A stretch of 64,000 nt of DNA from Paraburkholderia flagellata (lineage in GTDB: Bacteria; Pseudomonadota; Gammaproteobacteria; Burkholderiales; Burkholderiaceae): assembly GCF_021390645.1 (NCBI RefSeq), contig NZ_JAJEJT010000004.1, forward strand, positions 1,054,001 to 1,118,000, in the 5' to 3' direction. Below are positions 4,509-59,908 of this stretch, in pieces. A program made the translations under genes and the position numbers. The first letter of the stretch is position 1. Each line of letters opens with the position of its first letter. The notes under the pieces are model-generated. The model did no database searches. It was not told where the DNA came from and saw nothing but the letters and a program-made list of their open reading frames with translations.

Positions 4509-5384
4509 TTACTCGGAGGGCAGACGCTCCAGTGGACTGATGACCTCGCGCAGGAGATCGGTGGCGACCTGCACGTAAAGCGCAGTGGTCTCGAGCTGCT
4601 GGTGACCCAGCAGGACCTGGATCACACGGATGTCGACCTTCTGTTCGAGCAGGTGCGTCGCGAAACTGTGACGCAGGGTGTGCGGGGTGACGCGCTTGTC
4701 GATCTGCGCGGCCTCGGCGGCGGCGTGAACGGCGCGATTCAGCTGCCGCGTGCTGAGCGGGTCGACGGGATCCACCCCGGGAAACAGCCACCCGCCGTCG
4801 AGCATGCTGCCCTGGGTGCGGGCGACGCGCCACCAGAGCCGCAGGCGTTCGAGCAGGACCGGTGAGAGCATCGCGTAGCGGTCCTTGCGGCCCTTGCCCT
4901 GCTCGATGCGCAGCGTCATGCGCTGGCTGTCAATGTCGCTGACCTTCAGCGCGACCACCTCGCTCGCGCGCAATCCGGCGCCATAGGCGACCGACAGCGC
5001 GGTCTGGTGCTTCAGGTTACCGGCAGCTGCGATGAGCCGCCGCACCTCTTCGGGGCTGAGTACCACCGGGAGGTTGCGGGGCACACGAACCGGATGCATC
5101 CGGGCCATCAGCTCAGGCTGGCCGAGCGTAACGTCGAAGAAGAACTTCAGTGCGCTGATCGCCGCATTGAGCGACACCGGCGAGGTACCGTGATCGACAA
5201 GATGCAGCTGGTAGTCCCGCAGGTCCTCGACGGTGGCGGTATCGGGTGAGCGTCCGAGAAACCTGGCGAACTGGCGTACGGCGCGCAGATACCCGGACTG
5301 GGTCTTGGGTGCGAACTTGCGCATGCGCATGTCTTCAACCATGCGCCGGCGCAGCGGGCTGACGCCCGGATCGGAGGAGGTCAT
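4509..5384 (-). CDS. Tyrosine recombinase (XerC/D-like) of the IS91-type element
   Basis: A 291-residue integrase-type recombinase. An N-terminal SAM-like core-binding domain covers roughly residues 10-95. The catalytic domain shows GLRASE (first Arg), GKGRKDRY (Lys), HTLRHSF (His and second Arg), LLGH and the Tyr nucleophile in TTALYVQV. All six active-site positions appear present. AGGAG lies upstream of ATG 5384. Some IS91 members are known to carry such an upstream integrase gene, and the 15-bp gap to the transposase supports a single module. Whether it acts on the element or on other DNA is unknown. Confidence 0.9.
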   Translation of the reverse strand: MTSSDPGVSPLRRRMVEDMRMRKFAPKTQSGYLRAVRQFARFLGRSPDTATVEDLRDYQLHLVDHGTSPVSLNAAISALKFFFDVTLGQPELMARMHPVRVPRNLPVVLSPEEVRRLIAAAGNLKHQTALSVAYGAGLRASEVVALKVSDIDSQRMTLRIEQGKGRKDRYAMLSPVLLERLRLWWRVARTQGSMLDGGWLFPGVDPVDPLSTRQLNRAVHAAAEAAQIDKRVTPHTLRHSFATHLLEQKVDIRVIQVLLGHQQLETTALYVQVATDLLREVISPLERLPSE

Positions 5385-18647: not shown

Positions 18648-19085
18648 TTACCTACTCGTTTTGCGCGACTTTGACGACGTCACGTCGTGCGCGATCTCGG
18701 AGAGTCGCTTGTCACCAAGCAATTGAAGCAACGTATTTTCCGCTGAACCCAACGCCTCATTGATGTGGCGATTTACCGCCGCCTCCACGGGACATGTGTG
18801 ATTGTCGTCGGCTAGGCCGATCACAAACGGCGCGGTATGTCCAATGGCCTGGTAGACATCTCTCACCGTAAGATCGTTGAGGTCACAGGCGAGCGCCCAG
18901 CCTCCGCCTGGACCACCAGTCGACTTTACATACCCCGATTCGCGTAGCGCAGCCATCGTTCGGCGGACAAAGACGGGGTTCGTATGCAGCATCAGCGCAA
19001 TCGTCTCTGAGGTGGTCGCGCCTCCTCGAAGATGCATGTGGATGAGGATGTGCAGAAGTCGAGCCAGTCTGGTATCGCGTTGCAT
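18648..19085 (-). CDS. Rrf2-family transcriptional regulator
   Basis: A 145-residue regulator starting at ATG 19085 (MQRDTRLARLLHILIHM), the family's usual start; the frame also extends to a TTG at 19109. The winged helix shows TSETIALMLHTNPVFVRRTM and the GGPGGGWAL wing. Only one cysteine (NHTCPVEA) is present in the effector loop, so it lacks the three-cysteine iron-sulphur site of IscR/NsrR and resembles the YwnA-type redox-responsive branch. It is divergent from the epoxide-hydrolase-like gene 82 bp away, the likely target. Confidence 0.85.
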   Translation of the reverse strand: MQRDTRLARLLHILIHMHLRGGATTSETIALMLHTNPVFVRRTMAALRESGYVKSTGGPGGGWALACDLNDLTVRDVYQAIGHTAPFVIGLADDNHTCPVEAAVNRHINEALGSAENTLLQLLGDKRLSEIAHDVTSSKSRKTSR

Positions 19086-54705: not shown

Positions 54706-55695
54706 TCACGAGCGCGCCTTGCCAAGCACTTCGGGATTGACCGGATTCGGCGGACGCCCGGCCCGCGGCCCCTCGCCAAGACCAGCGATCAGATTGTCGG
54801 CAGCCAGGTTCGCCATTGCGCGGCGCGTCGCTTCAGTCGCGCTCGCGATATGCGGCGTCAGCACGACGTTCGGCAACGTAAGAAGATCCGGATGCACGCG
54901 CGGTTCATCTTCGAACACGTCAAGAGCGGCAGCGCCGATACGCCTCGCGCGCAGCGCATCAGCAAGCGCCGCGTCGTCGACGATACCGCCACGCGCGATG
55001 TTGGTGAGTGTCGCGGCCGGCTTCATCTGCGCGAGTTCAGCGACGCCGATCGTATGACGGTTATCGGGCGTGTACGGCAGGACGAGAACGACATGATCCG
55101 CGCAGCGCAGCAGTTGTTCCTTCGACACATACTCCGCGTTCAACTCCGCTTCGATCTGCGGCGCCACACGCGCACGGTTGTGGTAGACGACGCGCATGTT
55201 GAAGCCGCGCGCGCGGCGGGCGAGCGCCTGTCCGATGCGGCCCATGCCGACAATGCCGAGGGTCGAGCCGTGAATATCGGTACCGAGAAAGGCGTCGTAT
55301 TGAAACTTCTGCCACTTGCCGGCGCGCAGCCAGTGCTCTGACTCGGTCACGCGGCGCGCCGCCGCCATCATCAGCGCCCAGCCGAAGTCGGCCACTGATT
55401 CGTTCAGCACCTCAGGCGTGTTGGTCGCGAGGACATTGACCGCATTGAACGCGGCGATGTCGAAGTTGTTGAAACCAACGGCCATGTTCGACACGACGCG
55501 CAAGCGCGGCGCTGCCGCGAGCACCGCAGCCGTGATGGGTTCGCCCGCGGTCAGTGCGCCGTCCTTGTCCGCCAGGCGCTGAAGCAGTTCGTCGGCGGTG
55601 AGTACGTTGCCCTGGTTCCAGTCGACTGCGAAATAGTGTTTGAGTCGGTCGATCACGTCCGGAAAGGTCGGACCGGCTACCAGAATCTTCTGCAC
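54706..55695 (-). CDS. D-isomer-specific 2-hydroxyacid dehydrogenase
   Basis: A 329-residue NAD(P)-dependent enzyme. The cofactor loop is GMGRIGQALARRA. The catalytic triad is seen as the Arg in NIARGGIVDD, the Glu in VFEDEPRV and the His in TPHIASAT. It resembles GhrB-type glyoxylate/hydroxypyruvate/2-ketogluconate reductases. It should reduce a 2-oxo acid to the D-2-hydroxy acid, or the reverse. A homologous promoter block shared with the MFS gene lies upstream (55784-55846), which ties it to the 58.2-kb transporter. Confidence 0.92.
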   Translation of the reverse strand: MQKILVAGPTFPDVIDRLKHYFAVDWNQGNVLTADELLQRLADKDGALTAGEPITAAVLAAAPRLRVVSNMAVGFNNFDIAAFNAVNVLATNTPEVLNESVADFGWALMMAAARRVTESEHWLRAGKWQKFQYDAFLGTDIHGSTLGIVGMGRIGQALARRARGFNMRVVYHNRARVAPQIEAELNAEYVSKEQLLRCADHVVLVLPYTPDNRHTIGVAELAQMKPAATLTNIARGGIVDDAALADALRARRIGAAALDVFEDEPRVHPDLLTLPNVVLTPHIASATEATRRAMANLAADNLIAGLGEGPRAGRPPNPVNPEVLGKARS

Positions 55696-55783: not shown

Positions 55784-55846
55784 CTTTTCAATGCGTACGT
55801 CAAGCGTAACGGCTGCCCTGAATCGCAACTGCAAGGAAACTTGCAA
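55784..55846. promoter_or_regulatory. Shared promoter/operator block, copy A (TGCAA-N6-TTGCA)
   Basis: Contains CTTTTCA, AAGCGTA, TGCC and CGCAACTGCAAG in the same order and spacing as copy B at 59690-59753, with one single-base gap. The palindrome TGCAAGGAAACTTGCA is at 55830-55845. It lies upstream of the D-2-hydroxyacid dehydrogenase. Confidence 0.7.
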
Positions 55847-55947
55847 ACGTGGGTTCTTTAGGTATCGCTGACGTTGACCTGGGAGCCGGGCGCGCCGAAA
55901 CGACCTACGTCACTGGAATCGTGCTGGCTGCGGTGGTCGGCGCCGAT

Positions 55948-56835
55948 TCACGAACACACAGTTGCCAACCGGTCGCGGAACTCGAAGTAACTGGTGGTCA
56001 CAGCGCTCGGCGCCTGAACTTGCGGGTAGTGTCCGACACCGGGTAATTGCGTGACGTCGGAACGGGGCACCAGTTCGCGATAGCGATCGACCATGTGGCT
56101 CCCGGAGATGGGATCTACAGGGCCAACGATCAGCTTGAGCGGAATCTCCGCTGCCTGGAGCGCGCCCACCCATCTTTCGCGATGCTCGATGCGATCCGGG
56201 ATGTAATTGATGAGTTTGTGCATGATTCGCTCGCCGTGCCGTTCACGCAACAAATCCCACATGGAGTCGAGCGTTTCGGCGTCTGGCGGATATTGTTTCC
56301 CGAAAACCGCACTCATGTTTTCAGACAGTTTTCTTTTGGTCGTCAGCAAAGACACGAGCGGCCCAATCGGCGAGAGCAGCAGCGACTGAAAGCGCACGCG
56401 CCTGTGCGTTTCAGGGAAAAGGCCGCCGTTGAGGAAGCAGGCACTTCGGAGTTTCGGTCGATCTGATCGTTCAATATCCCGGGCTACCATTTCCTGTGCC
56501 ACCGAGTCGCCGTAGTCGTGAGCCAGAATGTGGAATTCGCCGACACCACGCATCGCAAGGAATTGATCGTAAAGATTGGCCTGATCGAGGATCGAGTATG
56601 TGTAATCTCGCGGCTTGTCCGAATAGCCGAACCCGATCATGTCGAGCGTGAGCAATCTGTAACGCCCGAGCAGATTCGGCCAGACGTGTAGCCAGTCCCA
56701 CGAAGCCGTCGGAAAGCCATGGATCAAAAGTAAAACGGGGGCATCCGCTCGCCCTTCATCGCGCCAGAAGATATTGTGCCCACGGTAGGTAAAGTAGTTT
56801 CCCCGGGCTTTCCATGCGTCTGTGCTTTGTGTCAT
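55948..56835 (-). CDS. Alpha/beta hydrolase, haloalkane-dehalogenase/epoxide-hydrolase-like
   Basis: A 295-residue hydrolase. It shows HGFPTASWDW (oxyanion loop), an Asp nucleophile in LAHDYGDSVAQ, GFGYSDKP, an acidic residue in VGPVDPISG and the His in GHYPQVQAP. The Asp nucleophile points to an epoxide hydrolase or dehalogenase rather than an esterase. GGAG-type sites lie upstream of ATG 56835. It is in the same direction as the neighbouring dehydrogenase and aldolase genes but has 200-bp gaps on both sides. Confidence 0.87.
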   Translation of the reverse strand: MTQSTDAWKARGNYFTYRGHNIFWRDEGRADAPVLLLIHGFPTASWDWLHVWPNLLGRYRLLTLDMIGFGYSDKPRDYTYSILDQANLYDQFLAMRGVGEFHILAHDYGDSVAQEMVARDIERSDRPKLRSACFLNGGLFPETHRRVRFQSLLLSPIGPLVSLLTTKRKLSENMSAVFGKQYPPDAETLDSMWDLLRERHGERIMHKLINYIPDRIEHRERWVGALQAAEIPLKLIVGPVDPISGSHMVDRYRELVPRSDVTQLPGVGHYPQVQAPSAVTTSYFEFRDRLATVCS

Positions 56836-57052
56836 GTCTCGCTCCTCCTACGGGCAAGCTCGATTGGTCTGCCTGGATAATTTGGAATACACATCATTAT
56901 CGTGACAATCCACAAAACGATGCGCGGTCACGAATATCGGGTGCATAGTTTCAACGCGCCCTTCGCGTTACATTCAGGGCGCGTATTCATCGACGGCGAG
57001 AAAGGGAGAGTTCCCTCTCCCGAAAGTTTCGTGCTTGCCCCAGAGCACTTCC

Positions 57053-57808
57053 CTACGAACGATAACTGTCGTCAATACGGTCCAGTTTGCGAATCATCGC
57101 CGGCCACACAAAGGAGCCTCCTACCCCGTCTGTCTGAACGTTCTTCGCCGACGCCGCTGTGGCCAGAATAGCCGGGTCGACAAGCGTCAGTTCTCCTCCC
57201 GCTTGCGCTGATAGCTGGATCTGGCACGCAGTCTCGAAGATGTACATCTGCAGGAATGCGTCGGCAATGGTCTTTCCGACGGTCAGCAGGCCATGGTTCC
57301 TGAGCATCAGATAGTTGGCGTGCCCAAGGTCGTCCTGCAAGCGCGGTTTTTCGTCATCTCGAAGCGCCACGCCCTCGTAATCGTGATACCCGAGCGAGTC
57401 GAGCACGAAGGTCGATTGCTGGGAAATCGGCAACAGGCCGTTCTTCTGTGCGCTCACGGCGACGCCCGCGCGCGTATGTGTGTGCAATACGCACTGCACG
57501 TCCTCGCGCGCAGCATGAATCGCGCTATGGATCACAAAGCCAGCGCGATTTACGTCGAACTCCGAATTCGAGAGTCGCTGGCCTTCGGTGTTGACCATGA
57601 TGAGCGACGATGCGGTGACCTCTTCGAACAGGAGCCCGTACGGGTTGATCAGGAACCGATGGTCAGGACCAGGCATTCGCGCGCTGATGTGAGTAAAGAT
57701 CAGATCGGTCCAGCCATGAAGCGCCACGAGGCGATAACATGCAGCGAGGTCGCAGCGGAGCTGCCACTCATCAGCACTGACGGTATTTTTCAGCGAGGGG
57801 ATTCGCAT
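57053..57808 (-). CDS. Class II aldolase/adducin-family protein
   Basis: A 251-residue protein of the class II aldolase fold. Zinc ligands are visible in HTHTRAGVAV and in the late LRNHGLLTVGKT; IFTHISARMPG is also conserved. Close families include fuculose-phosphate aldolase, 3-oxo-tetronate-phosphate decarboxylase and carboxylases without aldolase action. GGAGA precedes ATG 57808. Together with the D-2-hydroxyacid dehydrogenase and the ACS transporter, a sugar-acid pathway is suggested, but no kinase gene is present. Confidence 0.87.
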   Translation of the reverse strand: MRIPSLKNTVSADEWQLRCDLAACYRLVALHGWTDLIFTHISARMPGPDHRFLINPYGLLFEEVTASSLIMVNTEGQRLSNSEFDVNRAGFVIHSAIHAAREDVQCVLHTHTRAGVAVSAQKNGLLPISQQSTFVLDSLGYHDYEGVALRDDEKPRLQDDLGHANYLMLRNHGLLTVGKTIADAFLQMYIFETACQIQLSAQAGGELTLVDPAILATAASAKNVQTDGVGGSFVWPAMIRKLDRIDDSYRS

Positions 57809-57969
57809 GATGTCTCCTTGAAGTTGTTGAGGTTGGATCAGGAAACGCTGACGGGTTCAACATGGTTGCTTTGGCCGTCAACTTGACCATAGAGTACAGA
57901 AGCGCCTATCTTCAGACCGCAAGATATCTTCCATTTTTTGCGCCTCTCACCGCCCAATCGAGTTTTCAA

Positions 57970-58167
57970 ATGACTTTCATCGAACAGGCATCTGACCAGA
58001 TGCGCGCGAATCCGTGGTATGGCTCACTGGCTCGGGACACGCAGCAGGCGCTTCTGCGAGTGATATCGAGCATCATCGCCAGAATTTGCGCGATTTCCCT
58101 TCACTACGGCCGCATACAAATACTTTCAAGAGAGGCGTTGCTGAAGCTCCAGGAAGACGACTGCTAA
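57970..58167 (+). pseudogene. Crp/Fnr-family regulator remnant
   Basis: The plus frame begins MTFIEQASDQMRANPWYGSLARDTQQALLR, the usual start of a Crp/Fnr protein. After a short unrelated stretch it reads YGRIQILSREALLKLQEDD, like the middle of the cNMP-binding barrel, and then stops. The rest of the barrel and the HTH are absent. It appears to be an internally deleted, truncated regulator gene lying between the aldolase and transporter genes. Confidence 0.5.
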
Positions 58168-58202
58168 ACGTCTCAAGCGCGATCAGCCGTGCATCCCTTA
58201 CC

Positions 58203-59510
58203 TTATTTTTCCAGGTCTGCTTTCATGCGAAGCATGACAACGCTGGCCACCAAAAGAAGAACCGAGCAGGAATAGAGCCCAGCATCGAGGCTTCCCGTCG
58301 ATGTCTTTATCAGGCCAATTGCGTACGGACAGATGATTCCCGAAACGGCACCCAGGCTCGTAACGATAGCGATACCGACAGCCATGGATTCCTTGCGAAG
58401 CACCGACGTCGCCACGGCCCAGAAGACTGGGAACGACGATATCACTGCGGCCAACGCGACGGAAATCAGTGCGATAGAGGTCCACAGCAACCCTTCCGTC
58501 CAGTTGCAAAGGGAGAGCGTCACGGCGCAAAGCAGCACGGCAAACGCGAAGTGCCATCGCCGCTCCCGTGTCCTGTCAGAGTGGCGGCTGTACCAGATCA
58601 TCGCCACAATTCCGCACGCGTAGGGAATGAGGGAGAGCAAACCGATTCGTTGCAGGCCCGCTGCTCCGGCCCGTTCGATCATAGATGGCATCCAGAAGCT
58701 CAGCGCATAAGCGGCGCAGCTCATGGCGAAATAGAGCGCTGCGAGTCTGTAGACCGACATATCACGAAACACCTTACGAACACGTGCAGTCTCCGCCGGT
58801 ATGTCGCGTGATTTTTCTGCGAGATCTCGCGCGATGGCATCTTTCTCCGCGACAGAAAGCCATCTGGCAGCGGACGGCTGATCGACGAGCAAAAGATAAG
58901 TTGCAATGCCTAAGAGGACCGTCGGCAATCCCTCGAGCAGAAACATCCATTGCCACCCTCGCAAGCCGTGAACGCCGTTCATGTTTTGCAGTAAGTAGCC
59001 CGAAACGGGACCGGAAATCAAGCCCGCTGCGACCGTGGCGGCCATAAAGAAAGCAACGATGCGAGCCCGCCGATCAGCCGGAAACCATAGAGTCAGGTAA
59101 AAGAGGATACCCGGAAAGAAGCCAGCTTCGAACACGCCAAGGAAGAACCTCGCCACATAGAATTCAAGCGGATTCGCTACGAACATGGTGCCCATTGAAA
59201 CGACACCCCAGCAAAGCATGATGCGAAGCATTGTTTTACGCGCTCCGACTTTCTTCAAAAGCACGTTACTGGGTACCTCAAAGAGCACGTACCCCACAAA
59301 GAACATGCTGGCGCCCAACCCATATACGGCGTCCGAAAAATGTAGGTCGAACCGCATCTGCAATTGGGCATAGCCAATGTTGATTCGATCGAGGTAGGCA
59401 AGCAGATAACAGAAGAAAAGTAACGGAACGACTTTTCTCGTTACCTTTAGATAAGTCCTTTCGAGATCCGTCGAGGAACTCGTGTACTGAAATGCGGTAA
59501 TGTCTGACAT
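58203..59510 (-). CDS. MFS transporter, ACS type
   Basis: A 435-residue transporter with about 12 membrane helices. ATG 59510 (MSDITAFQY) has AAGGA about eight bases upstream. The first helix region (YLDRINIGYAQLQM) and the FEVPSNVLLKKVGARK loop mark the ACS family of organic-acid importers. It shares a promoter-type block with the D-2-hydroxyacid dehydrogenase gene, so the two are probably induced together. Likely substrate is a hydroxy or sugar acid. Confidence 0.92.
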   Translation of the reverse strand: MSDITAFQYTSSSTDLERTYLKVTRKVVPLLFFCYLLAYLDRINIGYAQLQMRFDLHFSDAVYGLGASMFFVGYVLFEVPSNVLLKKVGARKTMLRIMLCWGVVSMGTMFVANPLEFYVARFFLGVFEAGFFPGILFYLTLWFPADRRARIVAFFMAATVAAGLISGPVSGYLLQNMNGVHGLRGWQWMFLLEGLPTVLLGIATYLLLVDQPSAARWLSVAEKDAIARDLAEKSRDIPAETARVRKVFRDMSVYRLAALYFAMSCAAYALSFWMPSMIERAGAAGLQRIGLLSLIPYACGIVAMIWYSRHSDRTRERRWHFAFAVLLCAVTLSLCNWTEGLLWTSIALISVALAAVISSFPVFWAVATSVLRKESMAVGIAIVTSLGAVSGIICPYAIGLIKTSTGSLDAGLYSCSVLLLVASVVMLRMKADLEK

Positions 59511-59908
59511 TCTGGAGTCCTTTGTTAAAGGTGGGGACGCGCACAAAGAGCCTGCTGTATCGCATTCACACGGCGCGCCCGCTCCGTCTGGCCGAGAAGC
59601 GGATTCGATCGCATATCGCCCCGCTTACAGGAACGCCTTGATACGCACTGCGCAAATGGCCATTGGGCTTCGTGGCCCTGACATCACTCCTTTTCAGTTT
59701 CGTAAGGCAAGGGTAGTGGGTGCCTTGCCGCGCAACTGCAAGATAAGTTGCAATTTCGGGTTTATCCGGTCGAGGTTTCCGCTGGGCTGCGCGCTTAACC
59801 CAGCGACAAGAAAGTAGTCAGGCCGCGCCCCATCCCAGCGCAGCCGCTTGCGCGACCATCGCGCTTCTTCTACGCTCTGTTCGTCGTCTTTCCCCCTTTG
59901 AGCCTGCG
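59511..59908. other. Control region of the MFS and EamA genes
   Basis: 398 bases between divergent genes with no supported frame. It contains copy B of the shared promoter block at 59690-59753. Confidence 0.5.
59690..59753. promoter_or_regulatory. Shared promoter/operator block, copy B (TGCAA-N6-TTGCA)
   Basis: CTTTTCA, AAGGGTA, TGCC and CGCAACTGCAAG follow the same order as in copy A. The palindrome TGCAAGATAAGTTGCA lies at 59737-59752. The block is about 180-240 bp upstream of the MFS start. Confidence 0.7.

What the first reader, a model, noticed from the sequence alone, without database searches (positions are those of the whole stretch)
55784..59753. Homologous promoter block with TGCAA-N6-TTGCA before two genes 4 kb apart
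Seen: 55784-55846 and 59690-59753 share CTTTTCA, AAG(C/G)GTA, TGCC, CGCAACTGCAAG and TTGCAA in the same order, with one single-base gap; the AAG-to-TTGCAA part matches at 34 of 45. Each lies upstream of a minus-strand gene (D-2-hydroxyacid dehydrogenase, ACS transporter). Inference: duplicated promoter and operator giving joint control; the palindrome is the regulator site. The local Crp/Fnr gene is decayed, so the regulator may be elsewhere.
Basis: partly seen in the sequence, partly recalled or inferred. Interest (0 to 1): 0.7.

Follow-up and report, generated by a model that had tools for sequence, protein, structure and literature searches.

The report
Crp/Fnr-type operators at three promoters
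Neighbouring genes in this soil-type bacterium carry the same kind of DNA switch site, which matches a little-studied group of Crp-like activator proteins; the cluster's own activator gene is broken, so a sister protein encoded elsewhere in the genome may now work the switch.

Summary
In detail: the 55784-55846 core scores 30 against the 59690 block, 2000 shuffles reach at most 14. Best reading: Crp/Fnr-type operators. A matrix built from 24 porin promoters beside relatives of the decayed local Crp/Fnr gene (no window sequence in it) ranks the two blocks 1st and 2nd of 127,952 window positions, and a third site at the class II aldolase promoter 3rd. In all three, TACNCT lies exactly 21 nt after the operator, the geometry of class II CRP promoters; over 15 sites, 14 have TANNNT at 21 or 22 nt. 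Two relatives hold the cluster with an intact local regulator and all three sites. Here that gene lost about 520 bp, with a 32-nt inverted piece at the junction. One intact paralog with a near-identical recognition helix remains elsewhere in the genome. Against: some relatives with the right helix have no convincing site (L121-L123), porin promoters lack the 21-nt spacing, and the exact palindrome is not conserved at the dehydrogenase. Control by the paralog is inferred; nothing was tested at the bench. A new regulon of a known kind.

The parts
55830..55845 (-). operator of the D-2-hydroxyacid dehydrogenase promoter (TGCAA-N6-TTGCA)
   Evidence: rank 2 of 127,952 by the porin-site matrix
55803..55808 (-). 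-10-like hexamer TACGCT, 21 nt after the operator; start expected near 55796
   Evidence: start inferred
55851..55855 (-). upstream AACCC box
   Evidence: role unknown
54706..55695 (-). D-2-hydroxyacid dehydrogenase gene
55948..56835 (-). alpha/beta hydrolase gene behind the aldolase
57053..57808 (-). class II aldolase-family gene
57918..57933 (-). third operator (TGGAA-N6-TTGCG), aldolase promoter, also just upstream of the regulator remnant
   Evidence: rank 3 by the 25-column matrix, rank 2 by the 20-column one
57891..57896 (-). -10-like hexamer TACTCT, 21 nt after the third operator; start expected near 57884
   Evidence: start inferred
57970..58167 (+). remnant of the local Crp/Fnr regulator gene (ends kept, about 520 bp of the middle lost, 32 nt inverted at 58056-58087); the start codon is inferred
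   Evidence: no Pfam match
58203..59510 (-). MFS transporter gene of the ACS type (type name recalled)
59737..59752 (-). operator of the transporter promoter (TGCAA-N6-TTGCA)
   Evidence: rank 1 of 127,952
59710..59715 (-). -10-like hexamer TACCCT, 21 nt after the operator; start expected near 59703
   Evidence: start inferred
59758..59762 (-). upstream AACCC box
   Evidence: role unknown

Best explanation
The blocks are activator-dependent promoters for a Crp/Fnr-family regulator with its own DNA specificity: TGNAA-N6-TKRCA in place of CRP's TGTGA-N6-TCACA. Bound there, the dimer would be centred about 41.5 bp before the start (class II position) and help RNA polymerase use a poor -10 (TACNCT) that has no well-placed -35. 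Transporter, aldolase (perhaps with the hydrolase behind it) and dehydrogenase are thus switched on together. Shown: the sites, their spacing, their conservation, their association with this regulator subfamily, the loss of the local regulator. Inferred: binding, activation, and that the intact paralog at G000:C2:1608814-1609491 may now serve these sites. The signal sensed is unknown; its FG-Q and R-A-R where a solved Crp-family protein has FG-E and R-S-A (best alignments) suggest that it is not a usual cAMP receptor (inference; the roles of these residues are recalled).
For: Matrix from 24 porin promoters beside relatives of the regulator, none from the window, ranks the window sites 1, 2 and 3 of 127,952. 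TANNNT exactly 21 nt after the operator in 8 of 9 sites and 22 nt in the ninth, no other offset above one; 14 of 15 at 21 or 22 with six more sites. Intact regulator and all three sites in the two relatives that hold the cluster. Recognition helix RQTLx[LIV]EL in the paralog and the intact local type: in CRP, Arg180 contacts the first G and Glu181 with Arg185 the G:C pair of TGTGA (PMC11253593, passages); here Arg is kept, the other two are changed, and so is the base. 14 of 14 relatives of another genus with RQTLSKEL have no site above background. 17 of 17 held loci of dehydrogenase homologs outside the cluster lack the site.
Against: No binding or expression data. The bare palindrome is near background in the genome. 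L121-L123 have the right helix but no site above background; L189, L191 and L192 score within the range of background chunks. L120 has Pro in place of Gln and still a site. Porin promoters, the source of the matrix, do not have TANNNT at 21/22. An exact short form of the motif also occurs in 16 of 111 genomes without a detected regulator, against 22 of 33 with one. The profile search of the own genome did not list the transporter site, though only 150 of 1453 first-look candidates were scored.
Confidence: 0.8

Rival explanations
1. Orphan operators: the local activator is broken, the sites are leftovers that have not yet decayed, and the three genes are silent or run at a basal level.
For: The local regulator is destroyed. 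The paralog is only 57% identical to the intact local type and its own porin site reads TGTAA...TGACG.
Against: By the porin-site matrix the window's sites score higher than the relatives' in 5 of 6 comparisons. G002, which has the paralog but no local type, carries an exact TGCAA-N6-TTGCA in its porin promoter, so the paralog plausibly accepts such sites.
Confidence: 0.35
2. A LacI-type regulator like CytR, whose half-sites are also TGCAA/TTGCA, binds here.
For: CytR sites have been described as TGCAA-N2-3-TTGCA or with longer spacers (PMC3454398, passages).
Against: The sites keep N6 and a fixed distance to a -10-like hexamer and lie beside Crp/Fnr genes of one subfamily; but the matrices had fixed spacing, and LacI-family genes were not searched.
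Confidence: 0.05
3. Another Crp/Fnr protein of the genome uses the sites.
For: The own genome has nine clear Crp-type helix-turn-helix matches; two others share Arg-Gln in the helix (L146, L150).
Against: Apart from the paralog, none of those read has the RQTLx[LIV]EL helix; L148 was not read in its right frame.
Confidence: 0.1
4. Chance resemblance of two promoters.
For: The bare palindrome occurs at 11 places in the genome, against 7 for the control.
Against: Block similarity far above shuffles, prediction from outside sequences, fixed -10 distance.
Confidence: 0.02

Closest known systems
E. coli CRP (CAP) at class II promoters
   Same: Two-domain regulator; 16-base operator of two half-sites with N6 between; distance to the -10 fits a site centred at -41.5, the class II position (PMC7192510, passages)
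   Different: Half-site TGNAA instead of TGTGA; Glu181 to Gln and Arg185 to Leu/Ile/Val in the recognition helix; residues of the ligand pocket differ, ligand unknown; in 10 of 15 sites an extra CCC box upstream
DNR of Pseudomonas aeruginosa (PDB 3dkw; species recalled), best sequence match among solved structures
   Same: Same family over the whole length (E 3.9e-14)
   Different: Remote; different recognition helix; target and signal of DNR are recalled to be FNR-like sites and NO
CytR (LacI family)
   Same: TGCAA/TTGCA half-sites (PMC3454398, passages)
   Different: Other protein family, variable spacing

Membership tests
Crp/Fnr family (the regulators) | N-terminal cyclic-nucleotide-binding-like domain and C-terminal Crp-type helix-turn-helix | tested here: met
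   PF00027 and PF13545 above cut-off in the intact local type (L023) and in the paralog (L020)
Crp/Fnr family (the window's own gene) | Both domains present | tested here: not met
   Remnant without either domain
CRP-type operators | Two inverted half-sites of the TGNNA kind with N6 between | tested here: met
   G2, A5, T12, C15 invariant in 15 sites; two of the 15 deviate at position 1 or 16
CRP-type operators | CRP's own half-site TGTGA | tested here: not met
   Position 4 is A in 13 and C in 2 of 15 sites
Class II activator promoter | Operator at such a distance that it is centred near -41.5 (about 21 nt between operator and -10) | tested here: met
   21 nt in all three window promoters; 14 of 15 sites at 21 or 22; porin promoters do not meet it
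Class II activator promoter | Activation by the bound protein | not testable with these tools
   Needs transcription assays
cAMP receptor protein (CRP) | cAMP-binding residues and cAMP response | tested here: inconclusive
   Pocket letters differ from a Crp-family protein in the alignment; NCBIfam CRP model far below its cut-off; ligand binding not testable
CytR / LacI family operator | LacI-type regulator and variable half-site spacing | not tested
   LacI genes were not searched; spacing was fixed in the matrices used

The most novel reading that the evidence does not exclude
A Crp/Fnr subfamily of the family Burkholderiaceae with its own operator code (TGNAA half-sites read by an RQTLx[LIV]EL helix) and a promoter with an added AACCCG box just upstream of the operator. 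In this strain the cluster's own activator was destroyed and its three operators were kept because a paralog on another replicon took them over: a regulon rewired by loss of its regulator.
Probability: 0.4. Interest if true: 0.55.

Novelty: new member of a known kind. Interest (0 to 1): 0.42.

Why it matters
It gives an apparently undescribed group of Crp/Fnr regulators a predicted operator, promoter layout and targets (porin, acyl-CoA ligase, the aldolase cluster), and a natural case in which recognition-helix residues and operator bases change together. It also makes directly testable whether a paralog takes over operators after the cognate regulator is lost.

Tried and rejected
Sigma-54 promoter: rejected by eye, the reverse strand reads TTGCAA-N6-TTGC without the GG and with one base too many between the boxes (consensus recalled). 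Sigma-70 promoter without activator: TTGCAG to TACNCT has a 20-nt spacer, too long (recalled optimum 17). The bare palindrome as evidence: near background in the genome. The short motif GYAANNTTTCTKRCAGT gave 16 of 111 genomes without a detected regulator; in the ten loci read (nine from eight of those sixteen genomes, one from G058, which has the regulator), six are one orthologous place with GGCAA or AGCAA followed by TGACAGTT[TC]GTCAACGT, three of them with an OtsA-like start (name recalled) within the listed frames; the other four lie inside open frames. None of the ten has a Crp-like gene or TANNNT at 21/22. The match in G058 that counts among the 22 of 33 is of this other kind. Literature on this regulator or operator: searches showed none (zero hits or listings only); some searches were for CRP background. 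Papers: passages seen of PMC11253593, PMC7192510 and PMC3454398; all others as listings. The AACCCG box is unexplained; contact with the polymerase alpha subunit or a second protein is a guess.

Full report
OBSERVATION. With flanks they align over 76 columns with one gap, score 32. The 55784-55846 core scores 30 against the other block; 2000 dinucleotide shuffles of the core reach at most 14 and the best unrelated piece of the window 16. TGCAA-N6-TTGCA is exact only at 55830-55845 and 59737-59752 in the window. In the genome (9,002,095 bases, 6 contigs) it occurs at 11 places, against 7 for the reversed control, so the palindrome alone says little. TTGCAA-N6-TTGCAGTTGCG occurs without mismatch only at these two places; the other four hits have two mismatches.

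THE LOCAL REGULATOR. Two genomes of the genus have the same cluster with an intact Crp/Fnr-type gene between aldolase and transporter: G045 and G061. Their contig lengths equal those of P. hiiakae LMG 27952 and P. oxyphila NBRC 105797, so the genus is Paraburkholderia (inferred). In the window only the two ends of that gene remain: about 520 bp between the matching arms are gone and a 32-nt piece of the gene is inverted at the junction; the remaining frame matches no Pfam family. Of 144 genomes of the genus, these two alone hold a match above 90% identity; 33 of 144 hold some relative at E 1e-30 or better. The own genome keeps one such relative, 57% identical and intact, at C2:1608814-1609491, near a porin gene and two acyl-CoA ligase genes.

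AN INDEPENDENT PREDICTION OF THE OPERATOR. I took 40 loci with relatives of that paralog. In 24 of 24 that have a porin match of at least 71% identity beside the regulator, the porin promoter holds a conserved GTAA..TTTCTG core; 7 loci with a porin match of 42% or less do not, and 9 have no porin match. Many of these rows are close orthologs, so they are not independent. The third site lies between the aldolase start and the regulator remnant. Cut to 20 columns, transporter, aldolase and dehydrogenase sites rank 1, 2 and 3. The same three sites are the best three in both relatives' loci (25 columns). Six loci without a porin (L096, L097, L099, L120, L124, L125) have their best hit within about 350 nt of the regulator gene. 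A profile built from 24 distinct sites without any window site gave two hits in the own genome at E up to 10: the porin promoter (9.4e-4) and the dehydrogenase site (0.063). The transporter site was not listed; only 150 of 1453 first-look candidates were scored. A relaxed pattern gave the dehydrogenase and transporter sites as the only one-mismatch hits, then two sites of the porin promoter and three other places at two mismatches; the control gave 4 hits; the aldolase site was not among them.

PROMOTER GEOMETRY. In the window TACCCT, TACGCT and TACTCT stand exactly 21 nt after the 16-base operators of transporter, dehydrogenase and aldolase. Over nine sites (three from the window, six others) TANNNT is at 21 nt in 8 and at 22 nt in the ninth; no other offset has more than one. 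With six sites from other genera, 14 of 15 have it at 21 or 22 nt. Cautions: the six were taken, where the bases after the site were in view; L191 was counted on its lower-scoring strand; L187, the miss, would fit at 22 nt on its lower-scoring strand; L192, near-identical to L191, was left out; and several promoters are orthologs. A dimer centred at -41.5 gives this distance (class II position: PMC7192510, passages). The 24 porin promoters have no TANNNT at 21 or 22 nt, so they are built otherwise. In 10 of 15 sites CCC starts 8 or 9 nt before the operator, often as AACCCG, with about 0.7 expected (layout). This was noticed after the fact and is unexplained.

REGULATOR AND SITE CHANGE TOGETHER. 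Over the 15 sites the operator reads TGNAA-N6-TKRCA, with G2, A5, T12 and C15 invariant; position 4 is A in 13 and C in 2. In CRP, Arg180 contacts the first G, and Arg185 with Glu181 the G:C pair of TGTGA (PMC11253593, passages). Here the helix reads RQTLx[LIV]EL: Arg kept, Glu to Gln, Arg to a hydrophobic residue (numbering by my own alignment). L120 has Pro at the Gln place and still a site. In another genus 14 of 14 relatives read RQTLSKEL and have no hit above 11.6, where 51 background chunks average 9.7 with a maximum of 19.6. In this genus four relatives with TTLNKEL or PTLNKEL and three with QTTNQLL or QTINQVL have no hit above 5.9 with 25 columns, though L126 reaches 12.3 with 20. Against a simple rule: L121-L123 have the right helix but no site above background, and L189 (14.0), L191 and L192 (11.4) score within the background range. 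The own genome has nine clear Crp-type helix matches; two besides the paralog share Arg-Gln, none of those read shares the rest, and L148 was not read in frame.

SPECIFICITY. All 144 genomes match some part of the 5-kb query; the listed matches outside the own genome, G045 and G061 are to the dehydrogenase part, at 76-81% identity. Of these homologs 17 were held as loci, and 17 of 17 lack the site (best 5.5, against 12.1 to 21.5 in the clusters). So the promoter goes with the cluster copy. The exact palindrome itself is kept at the transporter in both relatives, but the dehydrogenase site reads TGGAA in its left half there. An exact short motif occurs in 22 of 33 genomes with a relative of the regulator and in 16 of 111 without (counted); what the others are is told under Tried and rejected.

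DUPLICATION. Outside operator and -10, transporter and dehydrogenase promoters agree at 22 of 46 columns (12.0 expected; 12 of 10,000 shuffles reach it); in P. hiiakae at 18 and in P. oxyphila at 19 (324 and 218 of 10,000). Transporter against aldolase gives 10, no excess. So copying of one promoter from the other is likely but not certain, and the aldolase promoter shows no sign of it.

MECHANISM. Most likely a Crp/Fnr-type class II activator binds the three sites and turns on uptake and breakdown of some organic acid or like compound; the substrate is unknown and the enzyme classes are the only clue. In this strain the cognate activator is gone. By the porin-site matrix the window's sites score higher than the relatives' in 5 of 6 comparisons, and G002, which has the paralog but no local type, carries an exact TGCAA-N6-TTGCA in its porin promoter. 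I put the paralog as present regulator at about 0.5 and orphan operators at about 0.35.

PRINT. No paper on this regulator or operator came up; the library holds open-licence PMC papers only.

Noticed in passing
window 58056-58087: The break in the Crp/Fnr remnant is a deletion of about 520 bp with a 32-nt piece of the same gene inserted in inverted orientation.
   Followed up: partly
L020 porin promoter (porin start 5743, minus strand); same in L021 and L022: Tandem sites: an exact TGCAA-N6-TTGCA about 35 bp upstream of the conserved TGTAA...TGACG site.
   Followed up: partly
L207-L210, L215, L216, near 5040-5090: A different conserved sequence, [GA]GCAA..TTTCTGACAGTT[TC]GTCAACGT, at one orthologous place, with an OtsA-like start nearby in three (gene name recalled). 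Perhaps another regulator's site.
   Followed up: no
L122, L123, L124: More distant relatives of the regulator also lie near a class II aldolase gene like the window's, so the pairing seems older than this cluster.
   Followed up: no
window 18915-19070 and G000:C6:9483-9638: Two weak helix-turn-helix matches on different contigs have the same score and the same printed translation, so the stretch may be a repeated or mobile element.
   Followed up: no
G000:C1:2188058-2189056: A second dehydrogenase copy in the own genome, 79% identical to that of the window.
   Followed up: no
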